Made by a program: the position numbers and the translations under genes
From: Mycobacteriaceae bacterium
Lineage (GTDB): Bacteria > Actinomycetota > Actinomycetes > Mycobacteriales > Mycobacteriaceae
Direction: 5' to 3'
Length of the DNA: 64,000 nucleotides
Assembly: GCA_019749805.1 (NCBI GenBank)
Contig: JAIEPH010000018.1
Location: forward strand, 19,110 to 83,109
Part shown: one piece after another, positions 32,888-57,855 of the stretch
How the letters are laid out: the number at the start of each line of letters is the position of its first letter
How positions within the stretch are numbered: the stretch's first letter is position 1
The notes under the pieces: generated by a model
What the model was told of the DNA's origin: nothing
Seen by the model: only the letters and a program-made list of their open reading frames with translations
The model's database searches: none

Positions 32888-32936
32888 CGCCCACCACCGA
32901 CCTGGCGCCGCCGGGCCCGCTTTGCGGTTGCGGGGT

Positions 32937-34548: not shown

Positions 34549-34580
34549 CGTCGCTCCTGTGCTGAATCGGTTACGTGATG

Positions 34581-39620: not shown

Positions 39621-39650
39621 TGGCTTTCCCCCACCGTTGGCTGTCTTGAA

Positions 39651-39926: not shown

Positions 39927-39959
39927 TTCGAATCTCTCCTCACATCTTGTTGGGGCTTG

Positions 39960-42570: not shown

Positions 42571-42995
42571 CGCCGCTCACCCCCGTGCTGGATGACCCGC
42601 AGCGTCGCCGTGCACGGACGTCGCCGTTGCTGCATGAACCGCACGCCCGCGCCCGAATCCACCGGCGGCGGGGTTGGCGGCTGCCACCCCGCGCTTGGGC
42701 CGGTCCACACCGCCGGCCACACCGGCGCCGCGGTGGGCATTCCGTAAACGTCCCGTCCTGACGAATAGGCGTTCACGAACTGATTGGCGACCGGATACTG
42801 GCCGACCCCGTGACCGGCGGCCTGGCCGCAGCCTTGTCGAGGCCGACCCAGCGCCCGAGCAACCACTAGCACAACCGCGACAACGGGTATAACCAGGATA
42901 ATTCCGCCGGCCAGCGACATCATCGCGGCCACCCCCTGCGGCATCGCCGCCAACGCGAGGACAAAAGCGGCTACAGCCGCTACGCTCACCTTCAT
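42567..42995 (-). CDS. Small two-helix membrane protein, first gene of the T4SS operon
   Basis: 142 residues. Hydrophobic helices at about 4-22 and 24-48 precede a Gly/Pro-rich soluble tail with a Cys (RQGCGQAAGHG). Another frame is open here (to 43032) but its product is Arg/Ser-rich and not protein-like. The start codon lies 12 bp from conserved element copy A, which is probably its promoter or operator. Confidence 0.65.
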   Translation of the reverse strand: MKVSVAAVAAFVLALAAMPQGVAAMMSLAGGIILVIPVVAVVLVVARALGRPRQGCGQAAGHGVGQYPVANQFVNAYSSGRDVYGMPTAAPVWPAVWTGPSAGWQPPTPPPVDSGAGVRFMQQRRRPCTATLRVIQHGGERR

Positions 42996-43006
42996 GAGTG
43001 CTGATT

Positions 43007-43041
43007 CTGTCAGAATAAAGCAGCAAGAGCAATAGGTAAAC
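43007..43041. promoter_or_regulatory. Conserved 35-bp element, copy A
   Basis: Lies between the divergent genes 42567-42995 and 43047-43829. Blocks: CTGTCAGAA, then AAGCA, then CAATAGGTAAAC, at the same spacing as copies at 45293 and 49031 and nearly the same at 57823. The + strand gene begins only five bases after the element, so its mRNA may be leaderless. Confidence 0.75.
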
Positions 43042-43046
43042 GAACT

Positions 43047-43829
43047 ATGAGCAGGTATGTGCCGGATCGGTTTGACGACCTACGCCGCGAGTGGATCGCC
43101 GATCACGCGGGCATCTTCACCATCCAGAAGCGCCGCGCCGAACGACTGAACCGCCAGATCCGTCGCCGCAATCGGGTCCTGGCTGGCGCACGACCAAACC
43201 CGTACGACGACAACACGATTCACCCACTGTGGGCGCGGCGGCCCACCACCGTGGAAGGCTGGCTGGAGCTGGCCATCATCGCCGCCGCAGCCGCCCTGGT
43301 GCCCATCGGCTGGCCGGTCGGGGTGCTGATGTATCAGCGCCTTATCGCACTGATCCCGACGCGGCTGCGGTCCTACCCGATACCGGCGCTGCTGTGGACC
43401 GCGGTCGGAATTGGCACCCTGTGCGCGCTGCTCTACACCCCCGATGACTCGCTGAGCACCGCGCTCTACGCGCCTTACCTCCTCGCGCAGATCCCCGCGG
43501 CGTTCGCTGTCGCCGGCCTCTACGGAATCCTTAACGGCTGGCTGGCCGTCGACGGATCCACCGACTGGTGGCCGCTCACACCGCCGCCCATCTCCGTCGA
43601 CCTCGATATCCCGATGGGCCCAGACGACATGACCGCACCGCCGGTCTTTGCCACCGCCGACGCCGAGCATCCCGGTGATCTGCGGCCCACCGGCGGGTCT
43701 CGCGGGTCGGTGCGCCTCGTAATCGTCGGCCTGCTGATTTGTGCGATCGGGTCGGCATGGATGACCGGCGCGGTGATCGCCGGTGTCAAAGACGTTGTGA
43801 CCCAGTCGGTGACGACCTACAGCGGCTAG
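43047..43829 (+). CDS. Four-helix membrane protein divergent from the T4SS operon
   Basis: 260 residues, ATG 43047, no ribosome binding site. Basic cytoplasmic N-terminus (RRAERLNRQIRRRNRVLAG) precedes membrane helices at about 73-98, 110-128, 138-160 and 226-248. No recognised family. It is convergent with virD4, sharing a CTAG at 43826-43829 as the two stop codons. Since the VirD4 here lacks its own membrane helices, this protein is a candidate membrane partner; that is inference. Confidence 0.75.
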   Translation: MSRYVPDRFDDLRREWIADHAGIFTIQKRRAERLNRQIRRRNRVLAGARPNPYDDNTIHPLWARRPTTVEGWLELAIIAAAAALVPIGWPVGVLMYQRLIALIPTRLRSYPIPALLWTAVGIGTLCALLYTPDDSLSTALYAPYLLAQIPAAFAVAGLYGILNGWLAVDGSTDWWPLTPPPISVDLDIPMGPDDMTAPPVFATADAEHPGDLRPTGGSRGSVRLVIVGLLICAIGSAWMTGAVIAGVKDVVTQSVTTYSG

Positions 43830-45283
43830 GTTTCGCTGTCGGCCCACAACTTCCTCAACCGCTCGACCACACGCCCGTCGCCGCCGGCTCGCTTGTCGCC
43901 ATTGCCCGCCCCGTTGAGCAACGTCTTGACCGCGGCGTCGTAGTAGGAGCGAAACACCGTCCAGTCGGGGATCTCGACGCACTTGCCTACATCTCCGCGC
44001 ACGAGCAGGCGCGCCGTCTCACGATTCGGGGGCAACAATTCTTGCCAGCGCAGCCCCGGTCCCATATCGCTGCTCAGGCTCCGGTGGCCATCGGCCTGGC
44101 TGTAGCTTTCCGGACGCCGATTGGTGAATAACGACCAGTCCTCGCCAGCTTCGAGCAGCTCAATTTCCCTGGCCCCGTACATGATCAGCGAGGCCGGAAA
44201 GATCGCCCGCAGTTCATCGGCGTAGTCCCTGCCATAGACCGTGTCCAGCTGACACGATGCCTGCACCGCTGCCACCATGTTGATGCCCAACCCGCGACCT
44301 TCCCCGACGATCCGGCGCAGACTCGGGATCGGGGCTGTGTTGGGCAACTCGTCGATCACCATCAGCAGACGGTGCATCTGCTCGCGCCGCGCGGTCTTCT
44401 CTCGCCAGCGCCGCACCAGCGAATCCAGCAGCGTCACCGCCGCGCCGGCCACCGTGCCGTCGGCCGGCGCCAACACAAACAACGTGGCTTGCGGATCATC
44501 GAGAAACACCGGGTCAAACGCGCGGTTGAACAGAGTCGGAGTCGCCGCCGACGTCGACATCGCCACCGTGGTCAACGCCGACAACGACAGCCGAAGCCAC
44601 GGCGTGATCGCCTTGCGCATCGTTATTGCCACAGAATCACGTTGGCGCGGGTCCATTTGCAGAATCCGCATCATCCCCAGCGCCAACACCTCATAGCGGC
44701 GGCATAACGCTGCGGCCTGGGCCCATCCGGGTTCGGTGAAGTTCTCCGGGTCGATGTTGTCCACCGCCCGCAACACCCAATCCATACCTTCGCCGTTGCC
44801 CTGCGGGGAAGCCGCATACAAGAATGCCGCCAGTGGACCCGCTGCTTGAGACTCCCAGATACCGCCGTCGGAAACCTCATCGGCCCCCGAGCCCAGACCG
44901 ACGGTGGCCATCTGCATGATCGTTTCGGCGATGGTCAGCGCTTCCAGGGGCGACTCGATCGTCACCGTCGGGTCATAGAACAGCGGGTCCACCCCGTCCG
45001 GATACACCGGGGTACCGATCGGGCGCAGATCAATCATGGCTTTGGGGCCGAACCGGCGCTCCATGACGTACTGCAGCAGGTCATCTTTGGACGACACCAC
45101 CACTGCTGGGCCACCCCACATCACCGCCGCCGGCGCCAGCACGCGCCGCGTCTTGCCCGTCTCGGTCGGCGCCGAAACCAGCACATGCGCCGCGGTGCTC
45201 GGCACATACAACTGCTCAGTAGCTTTGCGGCCCACGCGGCGGCGCAAGAACCCGCAGTAGGGCGTCGCGGGTTTGAGGTACAC
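43826..45283 (-). CDS. virD4: VirD4/TraG-type coupling protein lacking N-terminal membrane helices
   Basis: 485 residues from GTG 45283. Walker A APTETGKT (about 38-45), Walker B LLMVIDELPN (about 305-314), and the typical QDxxQ-region equivalent (MVAAVQASCQL). The all-alpha domain (about 120-240) contains PLAAFLYAASPQGNGEGMDW. Classical VirD4 proteins start with two membrane helices, which are absent here, so membrane attachment must come from a partner. It delivers the relaxase-DNA complex to the T4SS. The start is 10 bp from element copy C and TATAGT lies just upstream, consistent with a leaderless transcript. Confidence 0.9.
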   Translation of the reverse strand: MYLKPATPYCGFLRRRVGRKATEQLYVPSTAAHVLVSAPTETGKTRRVLAPAAVMWGGPAVVVSSKDDLLQYVMERRFGPKAMIDLRPIGTPVYPDGVDPLFYDPTVTIESPLEALTIAETIMQMATVGLGSGADEVSDGGIWESQAAGPLAAFLYAASPQGNGEGMDWVLRAVDNIDPENFTEPGWAQAAALCRRYEVLALGMMRILQMDPRQRDSVAITMRKAITPWLRLSLSALTTVAMSTSAATPTLFNRAFDPVFLDDPQATLFVLAPADGTVAGAAVTLLDSLVRRWREKTARREQMHRLLMVIDELPNTAPIPSLRRIVGEGRGLGINMVAAVQASCQLDTVYGRDYADELRAIFPASLIMYGAREIELLEAGEDWSLFTNRRPESYSQADGHRSLSSDMGPGLRWQELLPPNRETARLLVRGDVGKCVEIPDWTVFRSYYDAAVKTLLNGAGNGDKRAGGDGRVVERLRKLWADSET

Positions 45284-45292
45284 ACGACTATA

Positions 45293-45327
45293 CTGTCAAA
45301 ACTAAGCACTCAGGGCAATACAGAAAC
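45293..45327. promoter_or_regulatory. Conserved 35-bp element, copy C
   Basis: Blocks CTGTCAAAA, AAGCA and CAATACAGAAAC at the same spacing as copies A and B. Only virD4 (minus strand) is next to it; nothing codes rightward for about 225 bp, so the element most likely serves the minus-strand gene. Confidence 0.7.
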
Positions 45328-45552
45328 ATCAGCCGTTTACTGATTGTCTCGCGCGTGCAGACCGATAGCTGAGGGGTTGCAACTGAGGAGGCGGGCAGAC
45401 GTCGCTCATTCGCCGCAGCTTGAGCTGCTCAGTTAGTGAACCCGTGATCGGGACTTCTGACGGCTCGACCGGGACGCGAGGACGCCGGCGGCCCCTTCCC
45501 TGCGCTGGAAAGCGCCGTCATCGAACACCTTTCGTGTGACCGTGAGATCCGG

Positions 45553-46158
45553 TTAGCCAGCGCCGGTGTCGCCGTTGCATGTGGCTGGTGACCAAAATCC
45601 TCGCCCGTTGGCTCGGGCGTCGGACTCGGCCGAGCGAAACTGCGCCTGGTACCGATACGGCAGGTCGTAGGTGTACTCGTGGCCGAATCCCGCGCTGATC
45701 AGCATCAGATTCACCAGCTGCCCCGACGTCGTCCAGACATAGGCCAGCTCCCGGCCGTACTGGTCGCGGCTGTCTTGGGAGGGATCTTGCTCTAGGTACA
45801 CCGACTGGCCCGTCAACAGCTGTTTGGCGTGCTCGGATGCCTCAGCTCCGAAGCACTGCACACCGGTGCGGCGATCCTGGGTCTCCGGTGTGTCGATCCC
45901 GATCAGACGCACTTTCACACGCTCGTCGTCGCGTTCCACCGAGATCGTGTCACCGTCGATGACCGCAATCACCGCATGTGGTCCACGCACCCGATCCGCT
46001 GGCATCACCGGGTCTGCCCCGTGCGGTGCGGTCGTGGACACGGGCAGCATCGACTGCACCCCGGTACACCCGCATAGCCCCACAAGGAGCAGCGCCCAAA
46101 ATGCCCACAGCCCAACGACCTTGACGCCCATCCCGCGAGCACCCGCTGCACCAGACAT
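45553..46158 (-). CDS. Lipoprotein thermonuclease (SNase family)
   Basis: 201 residues from ATG 46158 (AAAGGAAA upstream). The N-terminal signal with lipobox-like LLLVGLCGC predicts a lipid-anchored extracytoplasmic protein. The SNase domain (about 60-195) has VIDGDTISVERDDERVKVRLIGIDTPE, with the Asp/Arg/Glu active-site set, and YGRELAYVW with the second arginine. It would hydrolyse DNA or RNA outside the membrane with Ca2+. Thermonucleases recur in conjugative plasmid transfer regions, where they may trim incoming or competing DNA. Next to the alpha/beta hydrolase gene (29-bp gap). Confidence 0.9.
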   Translation of the reverse strand: MSGAAGARGMGVKVVGLWAFWALLLVGLCGCTGVQSMLPVSTTAPHGADPVMPADRVRGPHAVIAVIDGDTISVERDDERVKVRLIGIDTPETQDRRTGVQCFGAEASEHAKQLLTGQSVYLEQDPSQDSRDQYGRELAYVWTTSGQLVNLMLISAGFGHEYTYDLPYRYQAQFRSAESDARANGRGFWSPATCNGDTGAG

Positions 46159-46186
46159 CTGCGTTTCCTTTCCCGAGACCCGGCGC

Positions 46187-47140
46187 TCAGCTTGCACGCC
46201 GAGCCCTCGCCGCGGTGGCGCTTTCGTTGGGGCGCAGCCTGATCGCCCTGTTGATCGCATTGGTCACGATGTGCGGTGCCTCGTGGAGCAGCATGTGCCC
46301 ACCCCAGGGCACCTCAACATGCACGGCGTGGGGAATGCTCGCCGCGAGCTCGCGCGCGTGAGCCGCGGGCGTGATTACGTCAGCGCCGCCACTGACCACC
46401 GTCGTGGCCGCGGTTATCGACCCCAGGCTGTGATAAAGGTCGTAGTTTTTCAGTCCTGGAAGAAAACCCACCGCCGTCGTCAACGGGGTGGTCTGCAGCG
46501 CGGCCGACATGAGGTCAGCGAGCGTGTTGCGCTCGGCGCTGCGGTGGCCGCCGCACTTCATCAGGGCAGCAGACATCGGGCCGGCGAGTGCCCGCGCCGT
46601 CGCGTCCAGCCGTGCAGGCCGCATGAGTGCGACAAGTTGAGCCAATGCGCCCAGCTGCGGCGTGCTCAGCAGCCGCCCAAGGCCACGCTGGTCGAGATTT
46701 CGCGCCGCGGTGGCGACCAGCACGAGAGCCTCCGGGTCCACAGGCCGATCGTGTGCGGCACGACCGCAGTAGGCCAGCGCGGCCATGCCACCCATGGAGT
46801 GGCCGGCGATGGTGAGGGGCCCGGCGACCTCGAGTACGGCCAGGAGTTCGGCGAGGTCGGCGCCCAGACGCTTCACCCGGTAGGTGCACATCGGTGCCGA
46901 ATCTGAGAGACCGTGGCCGCGGTGGTCGTAGCTGATCACCCGAATCCTTGCGCCCCGGCGGCGCACCAGCTGAGCGATCTGCACATCCCAGCACGACTGG
47001 CTGAGGCAAAAGCCGTGTAGCAGAACCACGGTGTGGTCGACCTGGCCACCTGACCACCAGTCTCGAACCGCCAGCTGCACACCATCTGTGGTGCGCACTG
47101 CGCGCTCGACGCAGCCGACACCGAGTGACCCTACTCTCAT
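46187..47140 (-). CDS. Alpha/beta-hydrolase
   Basis: 317 residues. Oxyanion HGFCLSQ near residue 43, nucleophile elbow GHSMGG (about 115-120), likely Asp in VVSGGADVITP and His in WGGHMLLHEAP. Mycobacterial lipase/esterase-like fold without signal peptide. Cell-envelope ester or lipid hydrolysis is likely given the transfer context but the substrate is unknown. It overlaps the downstream gene at 47137-47140 (ATG/stop overlap), so it belongs to the operon of the adenine methyltransferase. Confidence 0.85.
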   Translation of the reverse strand: MRVGSLGVGCVERAVRTTDGVQLAVRDWWSGGQVDHTVVLLHGFCLSQSCWDVQIAQLVRRRGARIRVISYDHRGHGLSDSAPMCTYRVKRLGADLAELLAVLEVAGPLTIAGHSMGGMAALAYCGRAAHDRPVDPEALVLVATAARNLDQRGLGRLLSTPQLGALAQLVALMRPARLDATARALAGPMSAALMKCGGHRSAERNTLADLMSAALQTTPLTTAVGFLPGLKNYDLYHSLGSITAATTVVSGGADVITPAAHARELAASIPHAVHVEVPWGGHMLLHEAPHIVTNAINRAIRLRPNESATAARARRAS

Positions 47141-47679
47141 CGCCGCCTCGCTTCCTGTTGTGCCGCCGCCGAGGTCGCCTCCAATGACTCAACGGCGCCG
47201 CTGAACTCGCCACATCCGCCATCTGCGAACTGACGCCACGGGATGAACCTCTCGCGCGTGCCCCGGGAGTCTTGGCACCAAAAACCCCACAGACGACGAT
47301 GCGGCCCGGTCACGATCACCGTCCAGCACGGGATCTCGCACCCAGAGCTGTTGCGCGGTAGACAGATACGATGCCGGTGGGTGGCCTGGCGGACCGCGAT
47401 GCTGGCGCGCCCGCGCCGATGCACACCGGTGGGCGTCACCTCAAAATAGGCCCCGGACAAGATGACCGAGGCGAAGCCCCACGGATGATCATGCAGCCCT
47501 TCAGGATCGGAGGCGATGAACTGGTGTAGATACACGTTCAGCCAACGGTTGCGCGGCATGAGATACCAACGCCTCAAATACGGTTCGCCTGGTTTGGCTG
47601 CCACCACTTGGTGAGGTTCACCCCGCAACCAGGCCCGCCACCAGCTGATCTCGGTGGGTCGGCTCACCACCGCGCTCAT
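47137..47679 (-). CDS. Cupin-like protein
   Basis: 180 residues from ATG 47679, overlapping the stop of the preceding gene. The core YLHQFIASDPEGLHDHPWGFASVILSGAYFEV (about 50-81), then THRHRICLP and CWTVIVTGPHRRLWGF, has the HxH...G spacing and beta pattern of a cupin fold with histidines for a metal. Comparable proteins occur in phages and plasmids with unknown substrate. Confidence 0.7.
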   Translation of the reverse strand: MSAVVSRPTEISWWRAWLRGEPHQVVAAKPGEPYLRRWYLMPRNRWLNVYLHQFIASDPEGLHDHPWGFASVILSGAYFEVTPTGVHRRGRASIAVRQATHRHRICLPRNSSGCEIPCWTVIVTGPHRRLWGFWCQDSRGTRERFIPWRQFADGGCGEFSGAVESLEATSAAAQQEARRR

Positions 47680-47969
47680 CGGTGCGGCCCCGCAGACGAC
47701 GTCACCGTGGCGCTCGCCGGCACAGGGCTCGTCGCCGCCGCGCCGCCGGTATGTCCCAGCACGATTTCCACCACGACCGGACGGCCCGCGTGATCGGCAA
47801 TCGGATAGCAGTAGTCGCCGTGCGACGCCGGAACCGCCACGTCCACCCCACCGGCGGCCAGACTCAACGTCTCGGCAACCATGAGCAGCAGCATCGAGCA
47901 CAGACCCGCCAGCGCGCCGCACACCATTGGCCATGGGGACCGGGCTCGTGCACTCGTCGCACTCGTCAC
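47676..47969 (-). CDS. Small exported or membrane-anchored protein
   Basis: 97 residues with a signal-anchor helix (about 14-38: VCGALAGLCSMLLLMVAET) and a small extracytoplasmic beta-rich part (GVDVAVPASHGDYCYPIAD). No family recognised. Overlaps both neighbours by four bases. Confidence 0.65.
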   Translation of the reverse strand: MTSATSARARSPWPMVCGALAGLCSMLLLMVAETLSLAAGGVDVAVPASHGDYCYPIADHAGRPVVVEIVLGHTGGAAATSPVPASATVTSSAGPHR

Positions 47970-48892
47970 GACGCCACCTCGGTTTCAGTCCACGTCGTGC
48001 CGGCATCCGTGGCAGGTGTGATCGGTGCCTGCGCAGACGAGGGATGCTGGACCGTGGGTTCATCGTCGTCCTCGTCGAAAAGCGACATCGCCTCTGTTAG
48101 AGGATGATTCGACCACAGCACCTCGGTGCGGTTCTGATCACCGCGGCGCCCGTTACCGGTGAACGTCGAGAGCCGCACACTGTGCCAGCCGTCGTAGAGC
48201 GAGTCGTAGAGGCCGCTGGAATACCCCGACAGCACCACATGCGCCCGACAGGCCCGCAGCGCCTCGGCAAGTTCGCGGTGCTGGTCGTCGCTGCGCATCT
48301 CCTGGGCGTACTGGTTGCCCCAGGCCCGCGTCGACCCGAGATACGGCGGGTCGACGTAGAGCAGGACGTCGCGGTGTTTGCCGTACTTGCCGATCAGCTC
48401 GATCGCCGGCCGACACTCCAGACTCACCCCCGCCAGCCGCGACGCGGCGGGCAACAGCCGAGCCACGTAGCCGCCCAGGTAGTCGGGCATGCCAGCTCCA
48501 CCATGGGGATTGGCGTAGTGGCGCCATCCCGTGCGGCGTCGCGTCAGCCCCGAACGTCCTTGGGTCAGTCGTACCCACACCCGCCGCGCCCGCTCCAGCT
48601 GATCCAGCTCGTCGGCGGGCTCAAAGGAGCGCTCATGTTCACGCCGTGAATGTGGAGTCAGCGCGCACACCCGCGCCAGATCCTGCGGCCGATCGCGCAG
48701 CAGCCGCCAAAACAACACCAAGTCGCCGTCCAGGTCGTTCACCGTCTCCATCGGGCTGCGCGGTTTGGCCAGAAGAACGGACAGGGAACCGGCGAACGGC
48801 TCAACGTAGTGGCGCGCTGGTGGCAGTAACGCCACGATGCGATCGGCAACGCTCTGTTTGCCGCCGAAGTACGGAAACGGCGGGGTGCTCAA
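47966..48892 (-). CDS. Dam-class DNA adenine-N6 methyltransferase
   Basis: 308 residues when started at TTG 48892, which overlaps the stop of a 21-residue leader frame; the longer frame to 48961 has a TTG with no usable spacing from its ribosome site. The FPYFGGKQ motif at the N-terminus (SAM binding), YVEPFAGS, and catalytic DPPY (VDPPYLG, about residue 180) define the D12/Dam family. Probable recognition of a short palindrome such as GATC is family knowledge, not visible here. No cognate endonuclease, so a solitary enzyme likely protecting the plasmid or regulating transfer. Heads the operon ending with the thermonuclease. Confidence 0.88.
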   Translation of the reverse strand: MSTPPFPYFGGKQSVADRIVALLPPARHYVEPFAGSLSVLLAKPRSPMETVNDLDGDLVLFWRLLRDRPQDLARVCALTPHSRREHERSFEPADELDQLERARRVWVRLTQGRSGLTRRRTGWRHYANPHGGAGMPDYLGGYVARLLPAASRLAGVSLECRPAIELIGKYGKHRDVLLYVDPPYLGSTRAWGNQYAQEMRSDDQHRELAEALRACRAHVVLSGYSSGLYDSLYDGWHSVRLSTFTGNGRRGDQNRTEVLWSNHPLTEAMSLFDEDDDEPTVQHPSSAQAPITPATDAGTTWTETEVAS

Positions 48893-48954
48893 CGTCTCAC
48901 CTGCCAGGTGAACAGATCCCCGGTGGATCGTGCACTCGGACTCGCCGTCTGCAT
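48889..48954 (-). CDS. Possible 21-residue leader peptide of the adenine methyltransferase
   Basis: ATG at 48954 has GAGGAGG six bases upstream, the only strong ribosome site here. The 21-codon frame ends CGTTGA, whose TGA overlaps the TTG start of the methyltransferase. This arrangement implies translational coupling. The peptide (MQTASPSARSTG...) has no recognisable regulatory codons. Confidence 0.4.
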   Translation of the reverse strand: MQTASPSARSTGDLFTWQVRR

Positions 48955-49030
48955 TCCCCAACCTCCTCGCCGTAACGGAGATTTGGTGCGGCTACGCCGC
49001 GCCCGTTTACACCTTCCGTGTCACCCAATA

Positions 49031-49065
49031 CTGTCAGAAAAAAGCAGTAAGATCAATACGTAAAC
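49031..49065. promoter_or_regulatory. Conserved 35-bp element, copy B
   Basis: Between the divergent adenine methyltransferase and the 49110 gene. Blocks CTGTCAGAA, AAGCA, CAATACGTAAAC; 28 of 35 positions match copy A by eye. An extra GTTTAC half-site lies at 49007-49012 in inverted orientation. Confidence 0.75.
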
Positions 49066-49109
49066 GCCAGCTGTATACGTACCGTCGTTTTGCTACTGAG
49101 GAGGCTTTC

Positions 49110-49481
49110 ATGACCAGCGACAACAATCCGACCCCCGCGCAGGCGCTCGACGAAGCCCGCGCCGATGTCACCGCCGCCCGCGATGCCGCCAACCATGGCG
49201 ATCGCTACCGCCAGGGCCAGTACGCGCGGGCAGCCATCGACGCCGCGGCCAGCGCCATCCTCGATCCGGACTCCAGCCAACGCGAAGTCGTCGCCGCCCG
49301 GTTCTTCCTCAGAGAGAGCCTTGGGCTCGACGGCCGCGCCAACGACTGCGGAGCCGACAGCATCGACACCGAGCAGGAATCGTGCGGACTCAGCGACCCA
49401 GACCGCGAATGGCTAACGAACTATCTCAACAATCGCCGTCCCGCCCAGCGCACGCGCGCAGATAGTGGCCTCTCGCTGTAA
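49110..49481 (+). CDS. Small helical hypothetical protein
   Basis: 123 residues, ATG 49110 with GAGGAGG upstream. Helical, acidic, Ala-rich (QALDEARADVTAARDAA; YARAAIDAAASAIL), with a C-terminal NLNNRRPAQRTR-type basic tail. No recognised family. Starts 45 bp after element copy B and is convergent with eccA. Confidence 0.7.
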   Translation: MTSDNNPTPAQALDEARADVTAARDAANHGDRYRQGQYARAAIDAAASAILDPDSSQREVVAARFFLRESLGLDGRANDCGADSIDTEQESCGLSDPDREWLTNYLNNRRPAQRTRADSGLSL

Positions 49482-49537
49482 AGCGCGTTCTGCGTTGCCG
49501 CCCTGAACAATTCGCTCGCCTCGCGCCACCAGCGCCC

Positions 49538-51319
49538 TTACAGACCACGCTGCGCTGGTGGCAGCGCGTTGTTGAGCCCCTCGGCGAGGTCCTCGCGGGT
49601 CAGTAGCGACAAGGTCTCCTCGCCGATGTCTTGGCCAAGAGTTTCATCGGTGAGATCAGCTGCGCCCAAACCTAATTCCGTAATCACTCGCAGGTCGCGG
49701 ACTTCCTGGGAACGCTCCACGACGGTACGGACAAACCGCCCATTGCCCAGGATGTCGATGAGCCGTACGACATCGCCGTCGGGCGACTCGAACTGTTCGT
49801 TGTAGTAGCGGGCGAACGGCCCGGCCAGAACGTGCTCGATCGCGCCGTCCTCCACGCTGTCACCGCCTTGGGCGACGATCCCTCGCGCGATCGCCATCAA
49901 CGCATCCGGCTCGTAGGAACGAAATTCGATGACCGTCGAGAACCGCGACTGCAGACCGTCATTGGAATCAAGCACACGCTGGCATGCTCTGGGGTATCCC
50001 GCGGCGATAATCACCGCTTCGTCGCGGTGATTTTCCATCCACGGCACCAGCGCTGCCACGATCGCCTGTCCATAGGGGTCACCAGTGGTGTACCCAGGTT
50101 TGATGGTGTCGCCGAACTCGTCGAAGAACACCGTGGCGCCGATCGCCTTTTCCAGGAACGTTCTTGTGTTCGAGTCGGTTTCGCCGACATGAGGGCCCAG
50201 CAGGCTGTCGGGCTTGGTCTCGAAGATCTCTGAGCGCGGCAGCAGTCCCAGTCCACAGAAGATGTTAGCGATCGCGCGCGCGGAGGCGGTCTTTCCCACC
50301 CCCGGTGGTCCGACCATCAACAAATGGCGGCTCACTGGCGGTGTCGGTAAGCCTTTGCGTTGCCGCAACACCCGTGCGATAGTGCCGGCCTTGATCGTAG
50401 TGATGCGCTTCTTGACGTCGTCCAGGCCGACCATGGCGGCCAGATCTTTCTCGGCGGTGGCCAGCAGCGCGCGGGCGCTATCGGCGTGCTCGGCTGCCGC
50501 GCGCTGATCAGCAGACGTCTCGGTCGCCGGGTCCCACCGGTCGGTCCGTGAGTCAATGGTGGCCTCGTCGGTGACCTTCAGCCCGTAGGTCACATCAGCG
50601 ATCGCGACCTTGGCGAGCTCGAAATCCGGCCAGCGCACACGGATGTCGGTCAGCAGCGTGCGGGCGGCCTCCTCCTCGCCTTGTGAGCGCGCCACCAACG
50701 CGCGCAAGAACGTCGCGTCCCGCAGTAACGGATCCGACGGCGATGGCGTGTCACCTGCCCGGCCCACGGCCGCGAGCGCCCGGTCAAACAAGCCCAGATT
50801 GGCCGCTGCCTTCGCCTCAAGCAGGCTGGCCGCCCGGCGCAGGAACACGAACTGCCAGGTATCGCAGCCGATCAATGCGGTCAGCACGTCGGGCCAGCGC
50901 TCGGTGCGGCTGGCCAGCACCGCGCGCACGTAGGCCACTTGTGGGAGTGGCGGCAGCGCGTCGAGCTCGTCGCTGGCCTGCCCGAATTGCCCAGCGTCGA
51001 CCAGCGCCGCAGCGTAAGCCAGCCCCGCCGAGGTCTCGTCGATGATCTCCAGCCGTACGTACTCGATATCGAAGAAGGCGCCCAGCGCCTGCGGGGTCGT
51101 TCCTAACGCCCGCAGATCGGCCCCAACCCGGCGCGACACCTGCGACAGCGTGCGCAGCGTCGACAGCGATCGGTCACCGGCGGCCACGCGGCCCAGCCAG
51201 GCGTCGGCCATTTTCGGATCGTCGTCGGTAGCAAGCTCGAAAACCTGTCGTGCCCGCTGCGGGGCAGTCGGCAACGCTTTGACCGCTGCGCTCAGCGCCT
51301 CCAGGCCGCGATCGCTCAT
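49538..51319 (-). CDS. eccA: EccA-type AAA+ ATPase of the ESX locus
   Basis: 593 residues, standard EccA length. An N-terminal TPR-like helical domain (to ~270) is followed by a CbbX-type AAA+ domain with Walker A VGPPGVGKTASA (about 336-347) and Walker B TVFFDEFGD (about 400). EccA is a cytosolic ATPase that helps disassemble EspG-PE/PPE complexes or assist secretion. Last gene of the leftward ESX operon; its start overlaps eccE by four bases. Confidence 0.95.
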   Translation of the reverse strand: MSDRGLEALSAAVKALPTAPQRARQVFELATDDDPKMADAWLGRVAAGDRSLSTLRTLSQVSRRVGADLRALGTTPQALGAFFDIEYVRLEIIDETSAGLAYAAALVDAGQFGQASDELDALPPLPQVAYVRAVLASRTERWPDVLTALIGCDTWQFVFLRRAASLLEAKAAANLGLFDRALAAVGRAGDTPSPSDPLLRDATFLRALVARSQGEEEAARTLLTDIRVRWPDFELAKVAIADVTYGLKVTDEATIDSRTDRWDPATETSADQRAAAEHADSARALLATAEKDLAAMVGLDDVKKRITTIKAGTIARVLRQRKGLPTPPVSRHLLMVGPPGVGKTASARAIANIFCGLGLLPRSEIFETKPDSLLGPHVGETDSNTRTFLEKAIGATVFFDEFGDTIKPGYTTGDPYGQAIVAALVPWMENHRDEAVIIAAGYPRACQRVLDSNDGLQSRFSTVIEFRSYEPDALMAIARGIVAQGGDSVEDGAIEHVLAGPFARYYNEQFESPDGDVVRLIDILGNGRFVRTVVERSQEVRDLRVITELGLGAADLTDETLGQDIGEETLSLLTREDLAEGLNNALPPAQRGL

Positions 51320-53037
51320 CGGCGCTCCGCCCGACGAGAACGCAGATGACTCAAGTATTGAGCTTCGTTGCGTGGCCGCATGATCGTCAACGGAACCTCC
51401 CGCCCTGAGGGCGTAGTCAACACCACCTGACCCGTCGCGACCTGCGTGACAACGATGTCGGAATCTGCCGGTGGCGTCTTGGTCACCACGATCAGCGCGT
51501 GCCCACGCTCCCCGGTGGTGGCCAGCAGCCGCTGAGCGGCTTCGCCGTCTGCGACCACCAGCGTCGGTGTCTCGGGCGGTTCTATGCGCCCGGCCAGCAT
51601 GACGCGGTCGTCACAGATCGGCGACCACATCGCGGGCCGATCTGTATGAACCAGGGCAGTCGCCCCGGCGGCAGTGGCGCGCAGCACCAGCGACTGCACC
51701 ACGTACACGTCCGCATTCAACGCCACCCGGGTGTATTTGAGCGGGTCGGTAATCGACATCAGGAACGGAAATCCGCCAAGGGTCATCCCGAACAAGAACC
51801 CCGAGGACCCCACCGGAACGACCAGATTCTTCTTGTCTCCCAATCGGGGTCGCACCCGCGGGCGTTGCGGCGCCAGCCGCTTGGGGGCCAGCGGTAACTC
51901 CACTGCGCGATCCCCCAGCGGCAGCGAGGCCAGCAGCGCCGAGAATGACTGCCCGGCAACGCGATGCAAGGTATGAAGCGGCGGATGAGGCAGCGGCATC
52001 GTGGTGTGCAGGCGCACCAGCACCCCAGCCGCCAGGCTGCCGTCGGCGGCGCGTGTCAGCCGTACCACGGTCACCGTTGTCGTCGAGCGGATGGTCCACA
52101 AGTCATTGAGCAGCCGTGTCGTCAAATCCGTGCCGGCGACGCGATAGGGCGTCACGTACTCATTGCCCACCTGCAGGTGCGCCCAATGTTCCTCATAGCG
52201 CGCCAAGTCGTGCCCGGCCAATAGGGCATCGGTGGCCGCGTCGATCTGCTCGGGAGTGCACATCACCGCCCGGCAGCCTTCCCGTACCGCCGCCTGCCGG
52301 ATCCGTTCGGTGGCCGCCGCCACGGCCACCCCGATATCGCCGCGGTAAGTCAGCGCGTCCATGCATTCCTGCGGGTTCAACCGCAACACCAGCCAGGTGC
52401 GCCGCTCACCGACCGCCGGCCGGTCACCAATGATCTCCTCATAGCGCGGGGTGTATCGCCCCGTCGACGACGTCCTGCAGCCGACCGACACGGCGTCAAT
52501 CGAATGCAGCTCCAGCCCGCCGAACTGCTCGAGCAGCGCCCCGATCGCCTGCAGAGGCACCGTGTCGATCGTGTCGGCGCCCTCGGCGACAAGCGCCGTG
52601 GGTGGAAACGCTCGACCATGCAGCGCGATCATCGTGATCGCATACTGTCCATCCCAGCGCATGCCGACCGGACCCACTCCGGGCAAGTCGACATTGAACG
52701 GTGCGGGAATCGCGGTTCGCCTGGCCCGCACCGCTGCACTGCGCTTGGCTTTGCGGCGCGCGCGCACCCGGCCCAGCCACCCCAATGCGGTTGCGCCGCG
52801 GTAGGTCACGGTCACCACCAACAGCAGCACTGCTGCGGCAATCACCGGCGCCCACCACGGCAATCCAGCCACCGTCATAGCGAAACCGATTGCCAGCGCA
52901 ACGATTTCAGCCTTGACGATGCGCTGTAGCGGAAACCTTAGCCGCCAGCGCGGCAGCTTCTGATCACGCACCAACGGGGCGCTCGGACGCTGCTCGTTGT
53001 CGGCTGCAGTCCGCTCAGCGGTGGCTGTCGCGGTCAT
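51316..53037 (-). CDS. eccE: EccE, ESX membrane component
   Basis: 573 residues. Two N-terminal membrane helices (about 42-82) and a basic loop, then a large soluble domain (PALFNVDLPGVGPVGMRWDG-like region and following). This is the EccE arrangement: EccE sits at the periphery of the ESX membrane complex. Overlaps mycP and eccA by four bases each. ESX-2 order supports the call. Confidence 0.9.
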   Translation of the reverse strand: MTATATAERTAADNEQRPSAPLVRDQKLPRWRLRFPLQRIVKAEIVALAIGFAMTVAGLPWWAPVIAAAVLLLVVTVTYRGATALGWLGRVRARRKAKRSAAVRARRTAIPAPFNVDLPGVGPVGMRWDGQYAITMIALHGRAFPPTALVAEGADTIDTVPLQAIGALLEQFGGLELHSIDAVSVGCRTSSTGRYTPRYEEIIGDRPAVGERRTWLVLRLNPQECMDALTYRGDIGVAVAAATERIRQAAVREGCRAVMCTPEQIDAATDALLAGHDLARYEEHWAHLQVGNEYVTPYRVAGTDLTTRLLNDLWTIRSTTTVTVVRLTRAADGSLAAGVLVRLHTTMPLPHPPLHTLHRVAGQSFSALLASLPLGDRAVELPLAPKRLAPQRPRVRPRLGDKKNLVVPVGSSGFLFGMTLGGFPFLMSITDPLKYTRVALNADVYVVQSLVLRATAAGATALVHTDRPAMWSPICDDRVMLAGRIEPPETPTLVVADGEAAQRLLATTGERGHALIVVTKTPPADSDIVVTQVATGQVVLTTPSGREVPLTIMRPRNEAQYLSHLRSRRAERR

Positions 53038-54452
53038 CGCGTACCTCTCTTCGAGAGATTGATGATGGAAAACACCAGCACCAGGGCCAACACCAGCGCA
53101 CCTGTGCCCACGAGAGCGACGATCATCGGCCGGCGATCCGGTGGCGGCGGAGCCGGTGGCAGCGTCAAGGGCCGTGAAAGATGTTCTTGCGGCAGCGGAT
53201 CAGCCAGCGGAACGTCATAATTCAACGCGGCCAGCGGATCAATAGCGCCATAACCGACGCGGTTGTCGATCACTGCGGCCGGCGAGTGCGCCGTCTGCTT
53301 GATGCGATTAACCACTTGGGCCGCTGTCAATTCCGGATACTTCGCCCGGATCAGCACTGCCAGCCCCGAGACGTAGGCCGCCGAGAAACTGGTCCCGTTC
53401 ATCGCCTTGAGCACCCCGTCGGTCGTGTCGAACGTCGAATTGATCAGTCCGCCGCGAACATCGAATCCTTGGATGAACACTCCCGGCGCTGCGGTGCCAA
53501 CCCACGGCCCAAACAAGCTGATCTCGCGCCCGTTTTCGTCCGCGGCCGGCTGGCCAGCGCCATCGGTGGCGGTCACCGACAACACGTAATTCGAGAACCA
53601 CGCCGGCGTCGAGATGGTCACCACACCGTTCCAGTTGCGGTACTTCTCCGGAGAGGAAGCCGTGGCGTCGATATCGGGGTTCTGGGCGCAATCCTGGTTG
53701 GCCACATTTCCTGACGCCGCGACGATCACGACGTCTTTATCCACCGCGGCGTAGCGAAGCGCCGCACCAAGGGTGGTCTGGTCGACGGGCTTGAGCACCG
53801 GGATACACGCCACGACCGACATGTTGATCACCCGTGCGCCCGTGTTCGCCGCGTGCACAACGGCTTTGGCCAAAGTCGACACAGTGCCCGCCCGGCGATC
53901 AGCCTGCACGTCCCCCGCTGTGGGATTGGCCGGAACGTAGGCTCCCGACGATTGGCGAATCGAAATGATCTCAGCTTCCGGTGCCACGCCAACGAACCCG
54001 TCGGTCTCTGCCGGTGCGCCGCCGATGATGCTCGCCACGATCGTCCCATGCGAGTCGCAATCGGTAAGGCCGTCACCGCCTGCAACGACGTAATCGCCGG
54101 CCCCGCGCAGATGCCGCAGCCTCGGCGACGGAGACACCCCGGTGTCGATCAGCGCCACCGACACACCCTCGCCCTTGCCCGCTGACTTCCACAGCTCCGG
54201 CAGATCCATAAACGTCTGCGACGGCGACGGCGCCCCCAGGTCGCTATTGGGCAGCACGCCGGTGATCGCGCAGCCTTTCTCCATGCGCAGCGGCTCGTCC
54301 GGCCCAGGTGGAGTGTCCGGCGGCACCGCGGCCGGATCCACCACCGGCGGGGTGATCGCATTCGCCGTCCCCGACATCAACGGAGTCATCCCCACCAGGG
54401 CGATGACCGCTAACGTGGCCACCGCGCAGCGGCCCCGACGGTGCGCGCCCAT
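53034..54452 (-). CDS. mycP: Mycosin, subtilisin-like ESX protease
   Basis: 472 residues from ATG 54452, which overlaps the eccD stop. Signal peptide (about 1-35), catalytic Asp in ALIDTGVSPS (about 95), His in CDSHGTIVASIIGG (about 134), Ser in GTSFSAAYVSG (about 353), and a C-terminal membrane anchor (about 438-462). Mycosins process ESX substrates and stabilise the secretion complex. All three catalytic residues are intact. Confidence 0.95.
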   Translation of the reverse strand: MGAHRRGRCAVATLAVIALVGMTPLMSGTANAITPPVVDPAAVPPDTPPGPDEPLRMEKGCAITGVLPNSDLGAPSPSQTFMDLPELWKSAGKGEGVSVALIDTGVSPSPRLRHLRGAGDYVVAGGDGLTDCDSHGTIVASIIGGAPAETDGFVGVAPEAEIISIRQSSGAYVPANPTAGDVQADRRAGTVSTLAKAVVHAANTGARVINMSVVACIPVLKPVDQTTLGAALRYAAVDKDVVIVAASGNVANQDCAQNPDIDATASSPEKYRNWNGVVTISTPAWFSNYVLSVTATDGAGQPAADENGREISLFGPWVGTAAPGVFIQGFDVRGGLINSTFDTTDGVLKAMNGTSFSAAYVSGLAVLIRAKYPELTAAQVVNRIKQTAHSPAAVIDNRVGYGAIDPLAALNYDVPLADPLPQEHLSRPLTLPPAPPPPDRRPMIVALVGTGALVLALVLVFSIINLSKRGTR

Positions 54453-56002
54453 CAGCGGTTCCTGGCCAGGAAATACAAATTGAGCAACCAGAACGCCAAC
54501 GGCGGCACCAGCACGATCAGGCCATATTCTAGCCATTCCACCACCTTGCGGAACGGCGGGGAAAACGCCCGCCGCGGCACCGTCGCCGCGATGATCAGCC
54601 CCGCGATCCCCAGACCGAGGATCGCGGCGGCCATGATGAAGTTCATCCGCGCGTCATCGGCGACCACCGCATACTTCACCGCCAGCGCGGTCATCATCGC
54701 CAACGCGGTGGCCACGACGGTGACGGCCTGAGCCCGATCACCAAACGCGCGCCCGGTAAACACCAGAATCGCCGCCACGATCAGCACGTACACAGTGGCC
54801 AGCCACCACCGGCCGTGTCCAGGGATCACAGCGCCCCACGCGCCAAGGGCGAAGAACACTGACGTGGCAGCGACCAGTGCGGTCAGATACGTGTTGGCTG
54901 CCAAGGCGTCGCGCTCCAGCTCAGCCATGCTGGGGGTGCCCTGGGTTTCGGCGGCAGCCAACGCCTCGGCAGCGACGTCGTCAGCGTCGGCGAACACCAG
55001 TTTGCCTGTGACGGTGGGAAACTGCGGCATCGGAAGACGGGCGATGCGCCCGGCGAGGCCCTCGGACTTTCTCAACACCAGCAACGCGATGGCCATCGCC
55101 CCCACCCACAGGTATGTCATGGACACACCGAGCGCGCGGATCAACCAGAACGCGACGAAGGCGCTCGCGGTGATGGTGACCCACGCCAGGATTCCAGCCG
55201 GCGCCGGGGTCAGCCGCCACAGCGCCGCGGCCAGCACTGCAGCTGTGGCACACCCGAAGACCGCGTGCCAGGCTTGCGGCGGGCCCGGCGTGGCCATCAC
55301 CGCCGCCGCCGGCGCCGCGACCAGCGCCGAAAGCCACAGGCCGTTGGCGACCGCCAGCTCGCGGCGCCGCCACCACACGATCGACCCGGTCAGCAGCAGC
55401 GCGGCGCTCAGCGCCGCAGCCCCTATGGCCGGCACCAGGTTCCAGTTCTGGCCTGCCGCCAGGTTGAGTCGCCAGGCGTTGAGCAGCAGCCCGATCGTCA
55501 CCAGCACACCCACTGCTGCAGCGACGGCGGCGAAGAGCACAGCGACGCGTTCGGTGACCTCCGAACCCTTCGTGGCCAGCAGCTGCGCGATCGCCGAGGA
55601 CGCGTTCTCGACCACGGGGGTAAGCGTCACCTCTGCGTCAGCGGCCTCGAGGATCAGCAGGTCGCCGTCGAGCACCGACTGCTGGGCCAGGCTTTGGCCA
55701 CGGTCCAGCGGTTCGCCGTTGATCCGTGCCAACGTCACCGTGCCCGGGTTGATCAACCCCTCATCGTCGGGTGAACGCAGCGTTTCGCCCTCCAGCAGCA
55801 CCCGCAGAATCGAATCGACCACCGAGGCCACCGACGCGTTGGCCGGCAGCGTCAAATCATGTTGGCGTCCATCGAAAATCACGGCCACACGCACCTGCTC
55901 GATGAGCCGCGCGCGATCCCTCGGACGCACCCCGGGCCGCTCAGCTCCAGTCGTTGCCGCCGGCGTCGCCGCTGCCGCGTTGTTGTTTTCAACCAGGGTC
56001 AT
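54452..56002 (-). CDS. eccD: EccD, ESX transmembrane channel component
   Basis: 516 residues from ATG 56002, overlapping the preceding TGA and following GGAGTGG; a GTG at 56011 would add three residues. An N-terminal ubiquitin-like domain (about 35-125) and eleven predicted membrane helices (from ~155) are typical. EccD forms the central ESX membrane pore-like dimer. Confidence 0.95.
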   Translation of the reverse strand: MTLVENNNAAAATPAATTGAERPGVRPRDRARLIEQVRVAVIFDGRQHDLTLPANASVASVVDSILRVLLEGETLRSPDDEGLINPGTVTLARINGEPLDRGQSLAQQSVLDGDLLILEAADAEVTLTPVVENASSAIAQLLATKGSEVTERVAVLFAAVAAAVGVLVTIGLLLNAWRLNLAAGQNWNLVPAIGAAALSAALLLTGSIVWWRRRELAVANGLWLSALVAAPAAAVMATPGPPQAWHAVFGCATAAVLAAALWRLTPAPAGILAWVTITASAFVAFWLIRALGVSMTYLWVGAMAIALLVLRKSEGLAGRIARLPMPQFPTVTGKLVFADADDVAAEALAAAETQGTPSMAELERDALAANTYLTALVAATSVFFALGAWGAVIPGHGRWWLATVYVLIVAAILVFTGRAFGDRAQAVTVVATALAMMTALAVKYAVVADDARMNFIMAAAILGLGIAGLIIAATVPRRAFSPPFRKVVEWLEYGLIVLVPPLAFWLLNLYFLARNR

Positions 56003-57765
56003 CGGCGCCACTCCGTCGGTCCTGGACGGCCCAGCGAACCCGGATCGCGGTCAGCCGCGCCGGCGAAACCGTCGGCCAACGATGCGGCCGCTTCGATAAA
56101 AGCCCGACGGGTCTCAGGTTTGAGCCGATCGAAATCGATGGCGGTGGCTTCGTGCAGATGCGGATCGTAGGGAATTGTGTGAACCGCGCGCACAACACGT
56201 TCGAAGTCTTCGTGCAGGTTACGCACGGCGGTGTCAGCCGCGATCTTGGTGACATTGCTGATCACCATCACCGCCGACCGGACCAGGTGCGGATAACCGT
56301 GCGCCAGAAGCCAATTCAGCGTGTCCTGGGCGTATTTGGCGCCGTCGAGCCGCGTCGTCGACACGACAACAACAGCGTCGGCCATCTGCAGAACCGCCGC
56401 AGTAACGTCGTCGGCCATCTGGTTGCCGCAGTCGATCAGTCCGACCGGATACTGACGCTGCAGACGCTGCCACGCCTCTGTCAGCTGCCATCCCTGGATG
56501 ACCTCGTCGCCTGGGTCTGAACCCAGGACCTCCAGACCCGACGTCGAGTCCTTGCCCAGATGGAACCGAAAGTCGCTGTAGGCGTTGAGGTTGTCGTCGT
56601 TGATCAAGCTGCGCCACGTGTTCTGCGACGGGTGGTCGATACGCTCGGCCAAATTGCCCCTGGCCGGGTTGCCGTCAATGGCTACCACTTTGTCGTCGCG
56701 GTAGCGCGCCAAGGCCGCGCCAAGACCAACGGTGGTGGTGGTCTTAGACACCCCGCCTTTGATCTGCATCACCGCGATCAGATACGCACCCCGCAGATTA
56801 GCCTTCAGTCGCCGCTCAAGGTCTTTCCATTCCCGCTCAGCTGGCGACGGACCCAAATTGATACCGGTCGTGCGGCGAAGCGCCTTACGCCAACCTTTTT
56901 CCGGCTCGGGTTTGTGCGGCCGCACCAATTCGGCTTCACGGATCTGGGCGCGCATCGACCCAACCGAGAAATCGGTCTGCCTGCCACGATCGAGATGCTG
57001 TTCACGCGGCAGGTATTCGGTCGGATAGCCGGCCCGCCCCCCTTGCTGGCGTGGATCGGGTTGTGGCCCTGGCGGATTGACCGGTGCACGCCGCGGCGGC
57101 GGATACGGCTGTGGGCGGCGCTCAACCGGCGCTTCGGCAGCCGGCCGCGATGTGTCGGGTCCCTCGGGCAGCTGGATCGGACCAGAATTCGGTCCCGTGA
57201 GGCGTTCCGGTCGCGGCGGTGCCCCCCACGGCGGCGGCTCCGGTGCTCGGCGAGCCTCGGGCGCGACATGCTGCGGGCCGCTTGCAGGTCCAGCCGGCGG
57301 GACTGCTGACGTGCCGCGCTCACGCACGGGCGGGGGCCCCACCAGCGGAGGCTCCGGCGGAGTCTGACTCCGGCGCGGTGCTTGCGGTGCGGGCGGTGTT
57401 TGCGGTGGCCGCGCGTCATACCCGTGTCGACCCCCTGGGGTGCCCCACCCGTATGCGTCGGGGGCCGGCGGGCGCTCGCTGGGTGCGGCGTGCTGCGACC
57501 CTTCGCGCGTCCGCTGCCCGGCGGTCGCAGCGCCCCGCACATCTGGCGAGACTGCGGCCGTCATCTCCGCATCCGCATCCGCATCCGAGGCCGTCTCACC
57601 CAGTGCCACTGGTTTTTCCCCCGCTTCGACCTCTGGCGGCGACGGCACTGCTTCGGCGGCACCAGCGGAGCCAGGCTCGTCGGAGGCCTCAGGCTCGCCG
57701 TCCGGTTGCCGTGGCTGCGGGCTGGCATAGCGCGTGTAGAAGTCTTCGTCGTTGTTGTTGCTCAC
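55999..57765 (-). CDS. espI: EspI-like MinD/ParA-type ATPase
   Basis: 588 residues from GTG 57765 (GGAGACC upstream); a start at 57816 would extend into the promoter element. The N-terminal ~280 residues are Pro/Ala/Gly-rich and disordered, as in EspI. The C-terminal ATPase (from ~325) has a deviant Walker A KGGVSKTTTT (Ser in place of the usual Gly before Lys), with VVAIDGNPARGNLAERI and GLIDCGNQMADDV. EspI down-regulates ESX-1 secretion when ATP is low in M. tuberculosis; ESX-2 has a related protein at this position. Confidence 0.85.
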   Translation of the reverse strand: MSNNNDEDFYTRYASPQPRQPDGEPEASDEPGSAGAAEAVPSPPEVEAGEKPVALGETASDADADAEMTAAVSPDVRGAATAGQRTREGSQHAAPSERPPAPDAYGWGTPGGRHGYDARPPQTPPAPQAPRRSQTPPEPPLVGPPPVRERGTSAVPPAGPASGPQHVAPEARRAPEPPPWGAPPRPERLTGPNSGPIQLPEGPDTSRPAAEAPVERRPQPYPPPRRAPVNPPGPQPDPRQQGGRAGYPTEYLPREQHLDRGRQTDFSVGSMRAQIREAELVRPHKPEPEKGWRKALRRTTGINLGPSPAEREWKDLERRLKANLRGAYLIAVMQIKGGVSKTTTTVGLGAALARYRDDKVVAIDGNPARGNLAERIDHPSQNTWRSLINDDNLNAYSDFRFHLGKDSTSGLEVLGSDPGDEVIQGWQLTEAWQRLQRQYPVGLIDCGNQMADDVTAAVLQMADAVVVVSTTRLDGAKYAQDTLNWLLAHGYPHLVRSAVMVISNVTKIAADTAVRNLHEDFERVVRAVHTIPYDPHLHEATAIDFDRLKPETRRAFIEAAASLADGFAGAADRDPGSLGRPGPTEWRR

Positions 57766-57822
57766 CTGGTCTCCAATGTCTGGGTTCCCCCGCATCCAGC
57801 GTGCGACGCTGCTCAATACACT

Positions 57823-57855
57823 ACACTTTCAAGCACCATTACGCAGTACGTAAAC
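57823..57855. promoter_or_regulatory. Conserved element, copy D
   Basis: CACTTTC, AAGCA and CAGTACGTAAAC in the order and close to the spacing (one base longer after AAGCA) of copies A-C. The left block is the least conserved. Located 58-90 bp upstream of the espI start; the gene to the right ends just beyond it, so espI-eccD-mycP-eccE-eccA is the likely target unit. Confidence 0.55.

What the first reader, a model, noticed from the sequence alone, without database searches (positions are those of the whole stretch)
43007..57855. Four-copy conserved 35-bp element linking T4SS, coupling protein, methyltransferase and ESX units
Copies at 43007-43041, 45293-45327, 49031-49065 and 57823-57855 share the blocks CTGTCA(G/A)AA, AAGCA and CA(A/G)TA..(T/G)AAAC, three at identical spacing and the fourth one base longer. 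Every copy precedes a leftward gene: the first T4SS gene, virD4, the adenine methyltransferase and espI. Two also face a rightward gene. A 35-bp similarity at four promoter positions is not expected by chance. It is probably the operator of a plasmid regulator that switches conjugation and ESX together. What binds it is unknown; HTH proteins at 19.6, 26.4, 31.6, 32.5 and 32.9 kb are candidates.
Basis: partly seen in the sequence, partly recalled or inferred. Interest (0 to 1): 0.75.

Follow-up and report, generated by a model that had tools for sequence, protein, structure and literature searches.

The report
Shared switch for mycobacterial plasmid transfer
A short DNA element repeats at the starts of the gene sets for both secretion machines on a family of mycobacterial plasmids, and it is likely the docking site of one small plasmid-encoded DNA-binding protein that would turn the DNA-transfer kit up or down as a unit.

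Summary
The four copies are real, at the stated coordinates, and are the only four matches of their pattern in the host's 6.48 Mb genome. Read leftward, each looks like a promoter: a GTTTAC box, TG at about -35, 17 bp, then a -10-like hexamer. At the T4SS and virD4 copies a start codon follows 8 and 6 bp later. A matrix built from the four copies alone finds 45 hits (44 distinct sites) of score 20 or more in 24 related plasmid regions, all upstream of T4SS, espI, PPE, virD4 or hydrolase genes; permuted matrices give 0.47 on average (maximum 7) and six pRAW-type regions 0. The T4SS promoter carries the box in 25 of 25 regions including the window, and in 0 of 6 pRAW-type regions. The best candidate is a 114-aa winged-helix protein with a Cys/His insert (32543-32887) at the end of the T4SS operon: present in 9 of 9 pattern-positive transfer-plasmid genomes and 5 of 5 box plasmids of PLSDB, not found in 11 box-free plasmids. 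Binding, sign of control and signal are untested.

The parts
43004..43041 (-). Copy 1: GTTTAC box (43041-43036), TTG (43032-43030), -10-like CAGAAT (43009-43004); promoter of the T4SS operon; ATG at 42995 is 8 bp further
   Evidence: sequence; orthologous site in 24 of 24 related regions
45290..45327 (-). Copy 2: box variant GTTTCTGTATTG, -10-like CAGTAT (45295-45290); promoter of virD4; GTG at 45283 is 6 bp further
   Evidence: sequence; site before virD4 in 7 other regions
49028..49065 (-). Copy 3: GTTTACGTATTG, -10-like CAGTAT (49033-49028); promoter of the methylase/hydrolase unit
   Evidence: sequence; 5 of 5 regions with the hydrolase, window included
57818..57855 (-). Copy 4: GTTTACGTACTG, -10-like TAGTGT (57823-57818); promoter of espI and the ESX genes behind it
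   Evidence: sequence; 17 of 19 fully covered regions, window included; weak on window evidence alone
32543..32887 (-). 114-aa winged-helix protein with a Cys/His insert; proposed reader of the box
   Evidence: 29 of 396 genomes, among them 9 of 9 with a transfer-plasmid box; top five PLSDB hits are the five box plasmids; invariant residues; predicted winged-helix fold
32937..33686 (-). 249-aa HTH-like protein; second candidate reader
   Evidence: 23 of 24 box regions, 0 of 6 pRAW-type; absent from G210, which has the box
32543..42995 (-). Leftward chain of ten genes behind copy 1 (T4SS cluster ending in the winged-helix gene), taken as one operon
   Evidence: gaps of -7 to 49 bp except one of 217 bp; operon inferred
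43826..45283 (-). VirD4-type coupling protein
   Evidence: Pfam T4SS-DNA_transf, TraG-D_C
47966..48961 (-). D12-class N6-adenine methyltransferase
   Evidence: Pfam MethyltransfD12
55999..57816 (-). EspI-like ParA/MinD ATPase, first gene of the espI-eccD-mycP-eccE-eccA run; the start is more likely the GTG at 57765 behind a GGAGACC
   Evidence: Pfam CbiA, AAA_31; sequence; start inferred
43047..43829 (+). 260-aa protein divergent from the T4SS operon, directly behind copy 1; membrane protein by eye
   Evidence: 24 of 24 box regions and 6 of 6 pRAW-type regions; no Pfam family

Best explanation
The element is a conserved box built into the promoter-like sequences of the T4SS operon, the coupling-protein gene, the methylase/hydrolase unit and the espI/ESX unit, and it is likely the operator of a plasmid-encoded 114-aa winged-helix protein predicted to repress, and on a signal release, these transfer genes together. 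Shown: the fixed layout, conservation at orthologous promoters, near absence elsewhere, and tracking of the winged-helix gene with the box. Inferred: the -35/-10 assignment and the leaderless starts at copies 1 and 2; that this protein binds the box; that it represses (the box would cover about -46 to -21, where a bound protein would block RNA polymerase, and the gene ends the T4SS operon, which would give negative feedback); that the Cys/His insert senses a metal or redox signal.
For: Matrix from the four window copies alone: 45 hits of 20 or more in 24 related regions, all upstream of transfer genes; 60 permuted matrices average 0.47, maximum 7; pRAW-type regions 0. T4SS promoter 25 of 25 with the box. 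Four matches in the own genome, all on this contig. Strict pattern in 396 genomes: 11 matches, 10 of them at transfer-plasmid promoters (one, G087, by identity with the M. dioxanotrophicus site), reversed control 1. Winged-helix gene in 9 of 9 pattern-positive transfer-plasmid genomes but 29 of 396 overall; top five PLSDB hits are the five box plasmids. Of regions picked only for that gene, 12 of 12 with a covered T4SS promoter have the box there. In G336 a box heads an operon holding a paralog of the protein. Predicted winged-helix fold.
Against: No binding, transcription or transfer data. Gene and box travel in one plasmid lineage, so co-occurrence may be shared descent; a DUF4326 gene co-occurs as well (24 of 24). 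Copy 4 is not significant within the window alone. virD4 has the box in 8 of 23 and PE/PPE in 11 of 19 regions; the window itself has none at PE/PPE. The window matrix gives 2, 2 and 1 pRAW-type hits at thresholds 14, 16 and 18. An espI-only matrix puts 20 of 24 T4SS sites in its top seven but misses four (ranks 9 to 48; call 81C). The paper on M. tuberculosis promoters found no conserved -35 motif and a TANNNT -10, which CANNAT departs from (PMC3898074, passages). No sequence relative of the protein with a solved structure (one hit, E 0.44), and no Foldseek match with E up to 0.001.
Confidence: 0.4

Rival explanations
1. The box is the site of an activator, perhaps the same winged-helix protein, that helps RNA polymerase at weak promoters and turns transfer on.
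For: GTTTAC lies just upstream of -35, a place used by activators that touch the sigma factor; the T4SS-class hexamer CANNAT and the PE-class TTC at -35 look weak.
Against: Conserved letters continue into the spacer between -35 and -10 (TG(C)TT), where a bound protein more often blocks (general knowledge). R388 and RP4 networks use repressors only (PMC3937220, passages).
Confidence: 0.25
2. Another plasmid-encoded protein reads the box: the HTH-like protein at 32937-33686, or a Cro/C1-type protein elsewhere on the plasmid.
For: The HTH-like protein is in 23 of 24 box regions and 0 of 6 pRAW-type ones. A relative of an M. chelonae Cro/C1 protein is found in 20 of 22 box genomes.
Against: G210 has the box without the HTH-like protein. 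The Cro/C1 matches fall to 36-45% over short stretches in ten of the genomes, as generic HTH proteins would, and G064 and G151 have boxes without one at E 1e-5.
Confidence: 0.15
3. A host-encoded sigma factor or regulator reads the box.
For: The spacing from box to -10 is constant, as in a sigma-factor promoter.
Against: A host regulon should have chromosomal sites: none outside this contig in the own genome, and one match away from transfer genes (G237) in 396 genomes, as many as the reversed control gives. The strongest columns lie upstream of -35.
Confidence: 0.1
4. The promoters share descent or a good promoter sequence, and no dedicated regulator exists.
For: The element coincides with promoter positions; duplicated promoters would look alike.
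Against: Promoter classes differ in their -10 region yet keep the box, and conservation persists where VirD4 is 69-75% identical.
Confidence: 0.1

Closest known systems
Transfer-repressor networks of R388 (StbA, KorA, ArdK) and RP4
   Same: One plasmid protein proposed to act on several promoters of transfer and establishment genes, with its own operon among them; negative feedback (PMC3937220, abstract and passages).
   Different: Other host group; the box spans a T4SS and a type VII system; the candidate is a winged helix with a Cys/His insert; no repression has been shown here.
pRAW-type mycobacterial conjugative plasmids
   Same: Homologous VirD4, VirB4-like and ESX genes.
   Different: No box and no winged-helix gene in the regions examined; 8 of 11 box-free plasmids have a Cro/C1-like gene divergent from the T4SS operon.
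Fur/PerR/Zur and MarR-type winged-helix regulators
Mycobacterial leaderless promoters
   Same: Start codon 6-8 bp after the hexamer at copies 1 and 2; 26% of M. tuberculosis genes with a primary start are leaderless (PMC3898074, passages).
   Different: CANNAT instead of TANNNT at three copies, and a conserved box upstream of -35.

Membership tests
Plasmid-wide transfer regulon (R388/RP4-like) | The same operator at several transfer promoters of one plasmid | tested here: met
   Four promoters in the window; T4SS 25 of 25, espI 17 of 19, PE/PPE 11 of 19, virD4 8 of 23, hydrolase unit 5 of 5
Plasmid-wide transfer regulon (R388/RP4-like) | A plasmid-encoded DNA-binding regulator | tested here: inconclusive
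   Winged-helix gene co-occurs with the box; binding untested
Plasmid-wide transfer regulon (R388/RP4-like) | Repression of the promoters by that regulator | not testable with these tools
   needs reporters or RNA data
pRAW-type regulation | Cro/C1-like gene divergent from the T4SS operon | tested here: not met
   The 260-aa gene occupies that place in the window and in the five named box plasmids
Fur family | Winged-helix DNA-binding fold | tested here: met
   Model pLDDT 82.3, pTM 0.70; PerR and Zur among the best alignments
Fur family | Match to the FUR family profile above its cut-off | tested here: not met
   The window protein lists no FUR match; its homolog P0025 scores 18.2 bits against a cut-off of 23.1
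sigma-A-type mycobacterial promoter | TANNNT -10 hexamer | tested here: inconclusive
   TAGTGT at copy 4; CAGAAT, CAGTAT, CAGTAT at copies 1-3

The most novel reading that the evidence does not exclude
A single winged-helix sensor with a Cys/His insert controls, through one promoter box, the type IV coupling system, the type VII secretion system and the DNA methylase of a whole mycobacterial plasmid lineage: the first transfer regulon of this kind, evidence that the two secretion systems are run as one conjugation machine, and a case of regulator replacement against the pRAW lineage.
Probability: 0.35. Interest if true: 0.75.

Novelty: new variant of a known kind. Interest (0 to 1): 0.62.

Why it matters
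pRAW was described as needing both a type IV and a type VII system for transfer (title of Ummels et al. 2014, in the reference list of PMC12857230), and that 2025 review says it is unknown whether the VirB4/VirD4 core works with the T7SS as one channel (passages). A shared promoter element at both systems suggests that they are expressed as one unit and gives a handle on when mycobacterial plasmids transfer. The plasmid family includes a carrier of the macrolide-resistance gene erm(55). The candidate regulator has no name and can be tested directly.

Tried and rejected
Chance likeness of four 35-bp stretches: rejected. Copy 4 on window evidence alone: not significant, carried by relatives only. 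WhiB-type regulator by a cysteine pattern in the window and the loci held then: four matches, taken as chance. Rfam, window 32000-64000, gathering thresholds: no match. Element as a general feature of T4SS/ESX plasmids: rejected; the best 15-site-matrix score in 11 regions of plasmids without the winged-helix gene is 11.3. DUF2637 protein as reader: 8 of 24 box regions. Conserved inverted repeat in the box: none seen by eye. Distant winged-helix relatives: CP012886 (region L114), G181, G086 and G318 show no site above 8.1; MF600313, CP122997 and CP076860 (34-43% identity) were not examined. Foldseek gave no match with E up to 0.001.

Literature: six full-text searches on this subject listed no title on this element or regulator; two more were for comparison. 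One search, for the letters GTTTACGTG with mycobacteri, listed 4 papers, unrelated by title and not opened. Passages were seen of PMC7478629 (the word promoter does not occur in it), PMC12857230, PMC3937220 and PMC3898074; no paper was read whole.

Limits: the matrix was trained on 15 sites from the window, L008, L010, L011 and L012, so scores there are not independent; one search uses window copies only. Of the 24 related regions, 5 were chosen by VirD4 similarity, 7 by the strict pattern and 12 by the winged-helix gene, so 24 of 24 for that gene is partly by construction; several regions are near-identical (for example G142 and the M. chelonae plasmid). In one search ten more hits score 16 to 20; three of them (G336:17623, aub:133189, chel:127749) are not near transfer genes. 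Of 21 stretches fetched for the winged-helix gene, nine were not counted: G254, G032a, G032b, G106 and G197 do not cover the T4SS promoter; G181, G086, G318a and G318b have a 34-35% relative, no T4SS gene and no site of 12 or more. No search of all T4SS plasmids of the genus was obtained.

Full report
WHAT IS THERE. The four copies are present as described. Written leftward they align without gaps: c1 GTTTACCTATTG-ctc-17-CAGAAT, c2 GTTTCTGTATTG-ccc-17-CAGTAT, c3 GTTTACGTATTG-atc-17-CAGTAT, c4 GTTTACGTACTG-cgt-17-TAGTGT. The one-base shift seen in c4 concerns only the inner TGCTT block; the frame from GTTTAC to the hexamer is fixed. This is the layout of a promoter pointing at the leftward gene: TTG or CTG at -35, 17 bp, a -10 hexamer. 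At c1 an ATG follows the hexamer after 8 bp, at c2 a GTG after 6 bp, so leaderless transcripts are predicted; these are common in mycobacteria (26% of M. tuberculosis genes with a primary start; PMC3898074, passages). c3 and c4 would have leaders. The same paper found a TANNNT -10 and no conserved -35, so the assignment at c1-c3 (CANNAT) is an inference.

IS IT CHANCE? The pattern AAGCAN{7,8}CARTANNNAAAC occurs four times in the 6,476,954-base genome, all at these places; reversed control 0. In leave-one-out tests c1 to c3 each rank first in the window, c4 ranks 33rd. With a matrix from relatives only, c3, c1, c2 and c4 score 46.5, 44.3, 30.3 and 28.8, the next window position 10.2. With espI-class sites removed from training, c4 ranks fourth, behind c1 to c3, and all 17 espI-class rows rank 2 to 7 in their regions. 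The reverse test, an espI-only matrix, puts 20 of 24 T4SS-class rows in the top seven; four rank 9 to 48.

RELATIVES. tblastn of the window VirD4 against PLSDB matched 59 plasmids, five at 60-80% identity: M. dioxanotrophicus, M. intracellulare subsp. chimaera, M. aubagnense, M. chelonae pMchErm55 and M. riyadhense. All five have the box at the first T4SS gene; four of five at espI, two at PE/PPE, two at the hydrolase unit, one at virD4. M. riyadhense was not in the training set and gave 49.2 at espI, 31.9 before virD4 and 26.3 at the T4SS. Six pRAW-type regions gave no score above 11.3, and five more without the winged-helix gene none above 9.8.

The strict pattern GTTTACSTRNTGN{19,21}CAGNAT in 396 genomes of the genus gave 11 matches in 10 genomes, reversed control 1. 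Two matches are in the own genome. Seven other genomes were fetched and show transfer regions with the box; G087 has the M. dioxanotrophicus site; G237 has none of the transfer genes within the 19 kb fetched and is taken as chance.

A matrix from the four window copies alone, run on 24 related regions (1,146,274 bases), gave 45 hits of 20 or more (44 distinct sites). All 45 lie upstream of a T4SS, espI, PPE, virD4 or hydrolase gene, 97 to 1,908 bp from its matched part, and none inside a matched gene. Sixty column-permuted matrices gave 0.47 on average, maximum 7. Pooled pRAW-type DNA (232,180 bases) gave 0 at 20, but 1 at 18 and 2 at 14 and 16. By promoter, with the 15-site matrix and a score of 14 or more (window included): T4SS 25 of 25; espI 17 of 19 fully covered (misses: M. 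dioxanotrophicus, where a transposase gene splits espI, with a 14.6 site before its first part; and G121), three more cut off; PE/PPE 11 of 19 (the window scores 1.1); virD4 8 of 23, one of these cut; hydrolase unit 5 of 5; pRAW-type T4SS 0 of 6. The classes differ in their -10 region but share GTTYAC and mostly TG at -35 (TTC in most PE sites) and TG(C)TT, so the box is more than a generic promoter.

HOW IT MOST LIKELY WORKS. The winged-helix gene is the last of a ten-gene leftward chain behind c1 (gaps up to 49 bp, one of 217). Bound to the box, about -46 to -21, it would block polymerase at these promoters and at its own operon: a negative feedback that would let transfer genes burst when the plasmid enters a cell without repressor, as modelled for R388 (PMC3937220, abstract and passages). 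The Cys/His insert would let a metal or redox signal release it. Shown: layout, conservation, specificity, co-occurrence. Inferred: promoter activity, binding, repression, signal. Activation is a live rival.

COMPARISON. It works like the plasmid-wide repressor networks of R388 and RP4 but is not shown to be one. pRAW-type plasmids lack box and winged helix; eight of the eleven box-free plasmids have related Cro/C1-like genes divergent from the T4SS (BLAST; of four scanned, two pass HTH_3). The two lineages thus appear to use different regulators for homologous machines. Six searches of the library listed nothing on this element. Verdict: a real, conserved transfer-regulon element, undescribed as far as those searches show, with a strong but untested candidate reader.

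Noticed in passing
L009:18924-19358; L014:5782-6216; L115:14906-15340; L116:30263-30634; same place in L015-L018: In eight box-free plasmids a Cro/C1-like gene lies divergent from the T4SS operon, in front of a conserved GTTCAC...GGTAAC stretch in six of them seen by eye; it may be the pRAW-lineage counterpart of the box system.
   Followed up: partly
L024:31803-31814, L024:39629-39640; L020:4738-4749, L020:10951-10962: Box-like sites (scores 13.3 to 17.1) before genes of a second ESX-related cluster in the M. chelonae and M. dioxanotrophicus plasmids suggest further regulon members; the window contig ends before that cluster.
   Followed up: partly
window 43047-43829: A 260-aa protein without a Pfam family is found in 24 of 24 box regions and 6 of 6 pRAW-type regions: a core transfer gene of unknown function.
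   Followed up: no
window 45335-45340: A GTAAAC in the opposite sense lies just upstream of copy 2, whose own box is the most degenerate of the four.
   Followed up: no
L024:27959-28768: The M. chelonae member of this plasmid family (pMchErm55) carries the macrolide-resistance gene erm(55).
   Followed up: no
window 64000: The window ends where contig C97 (83,109 bases) ends, inside eccC, so the rest of the ESX locus and perhaps further boxes lie on other contigs.
   Followed up: no
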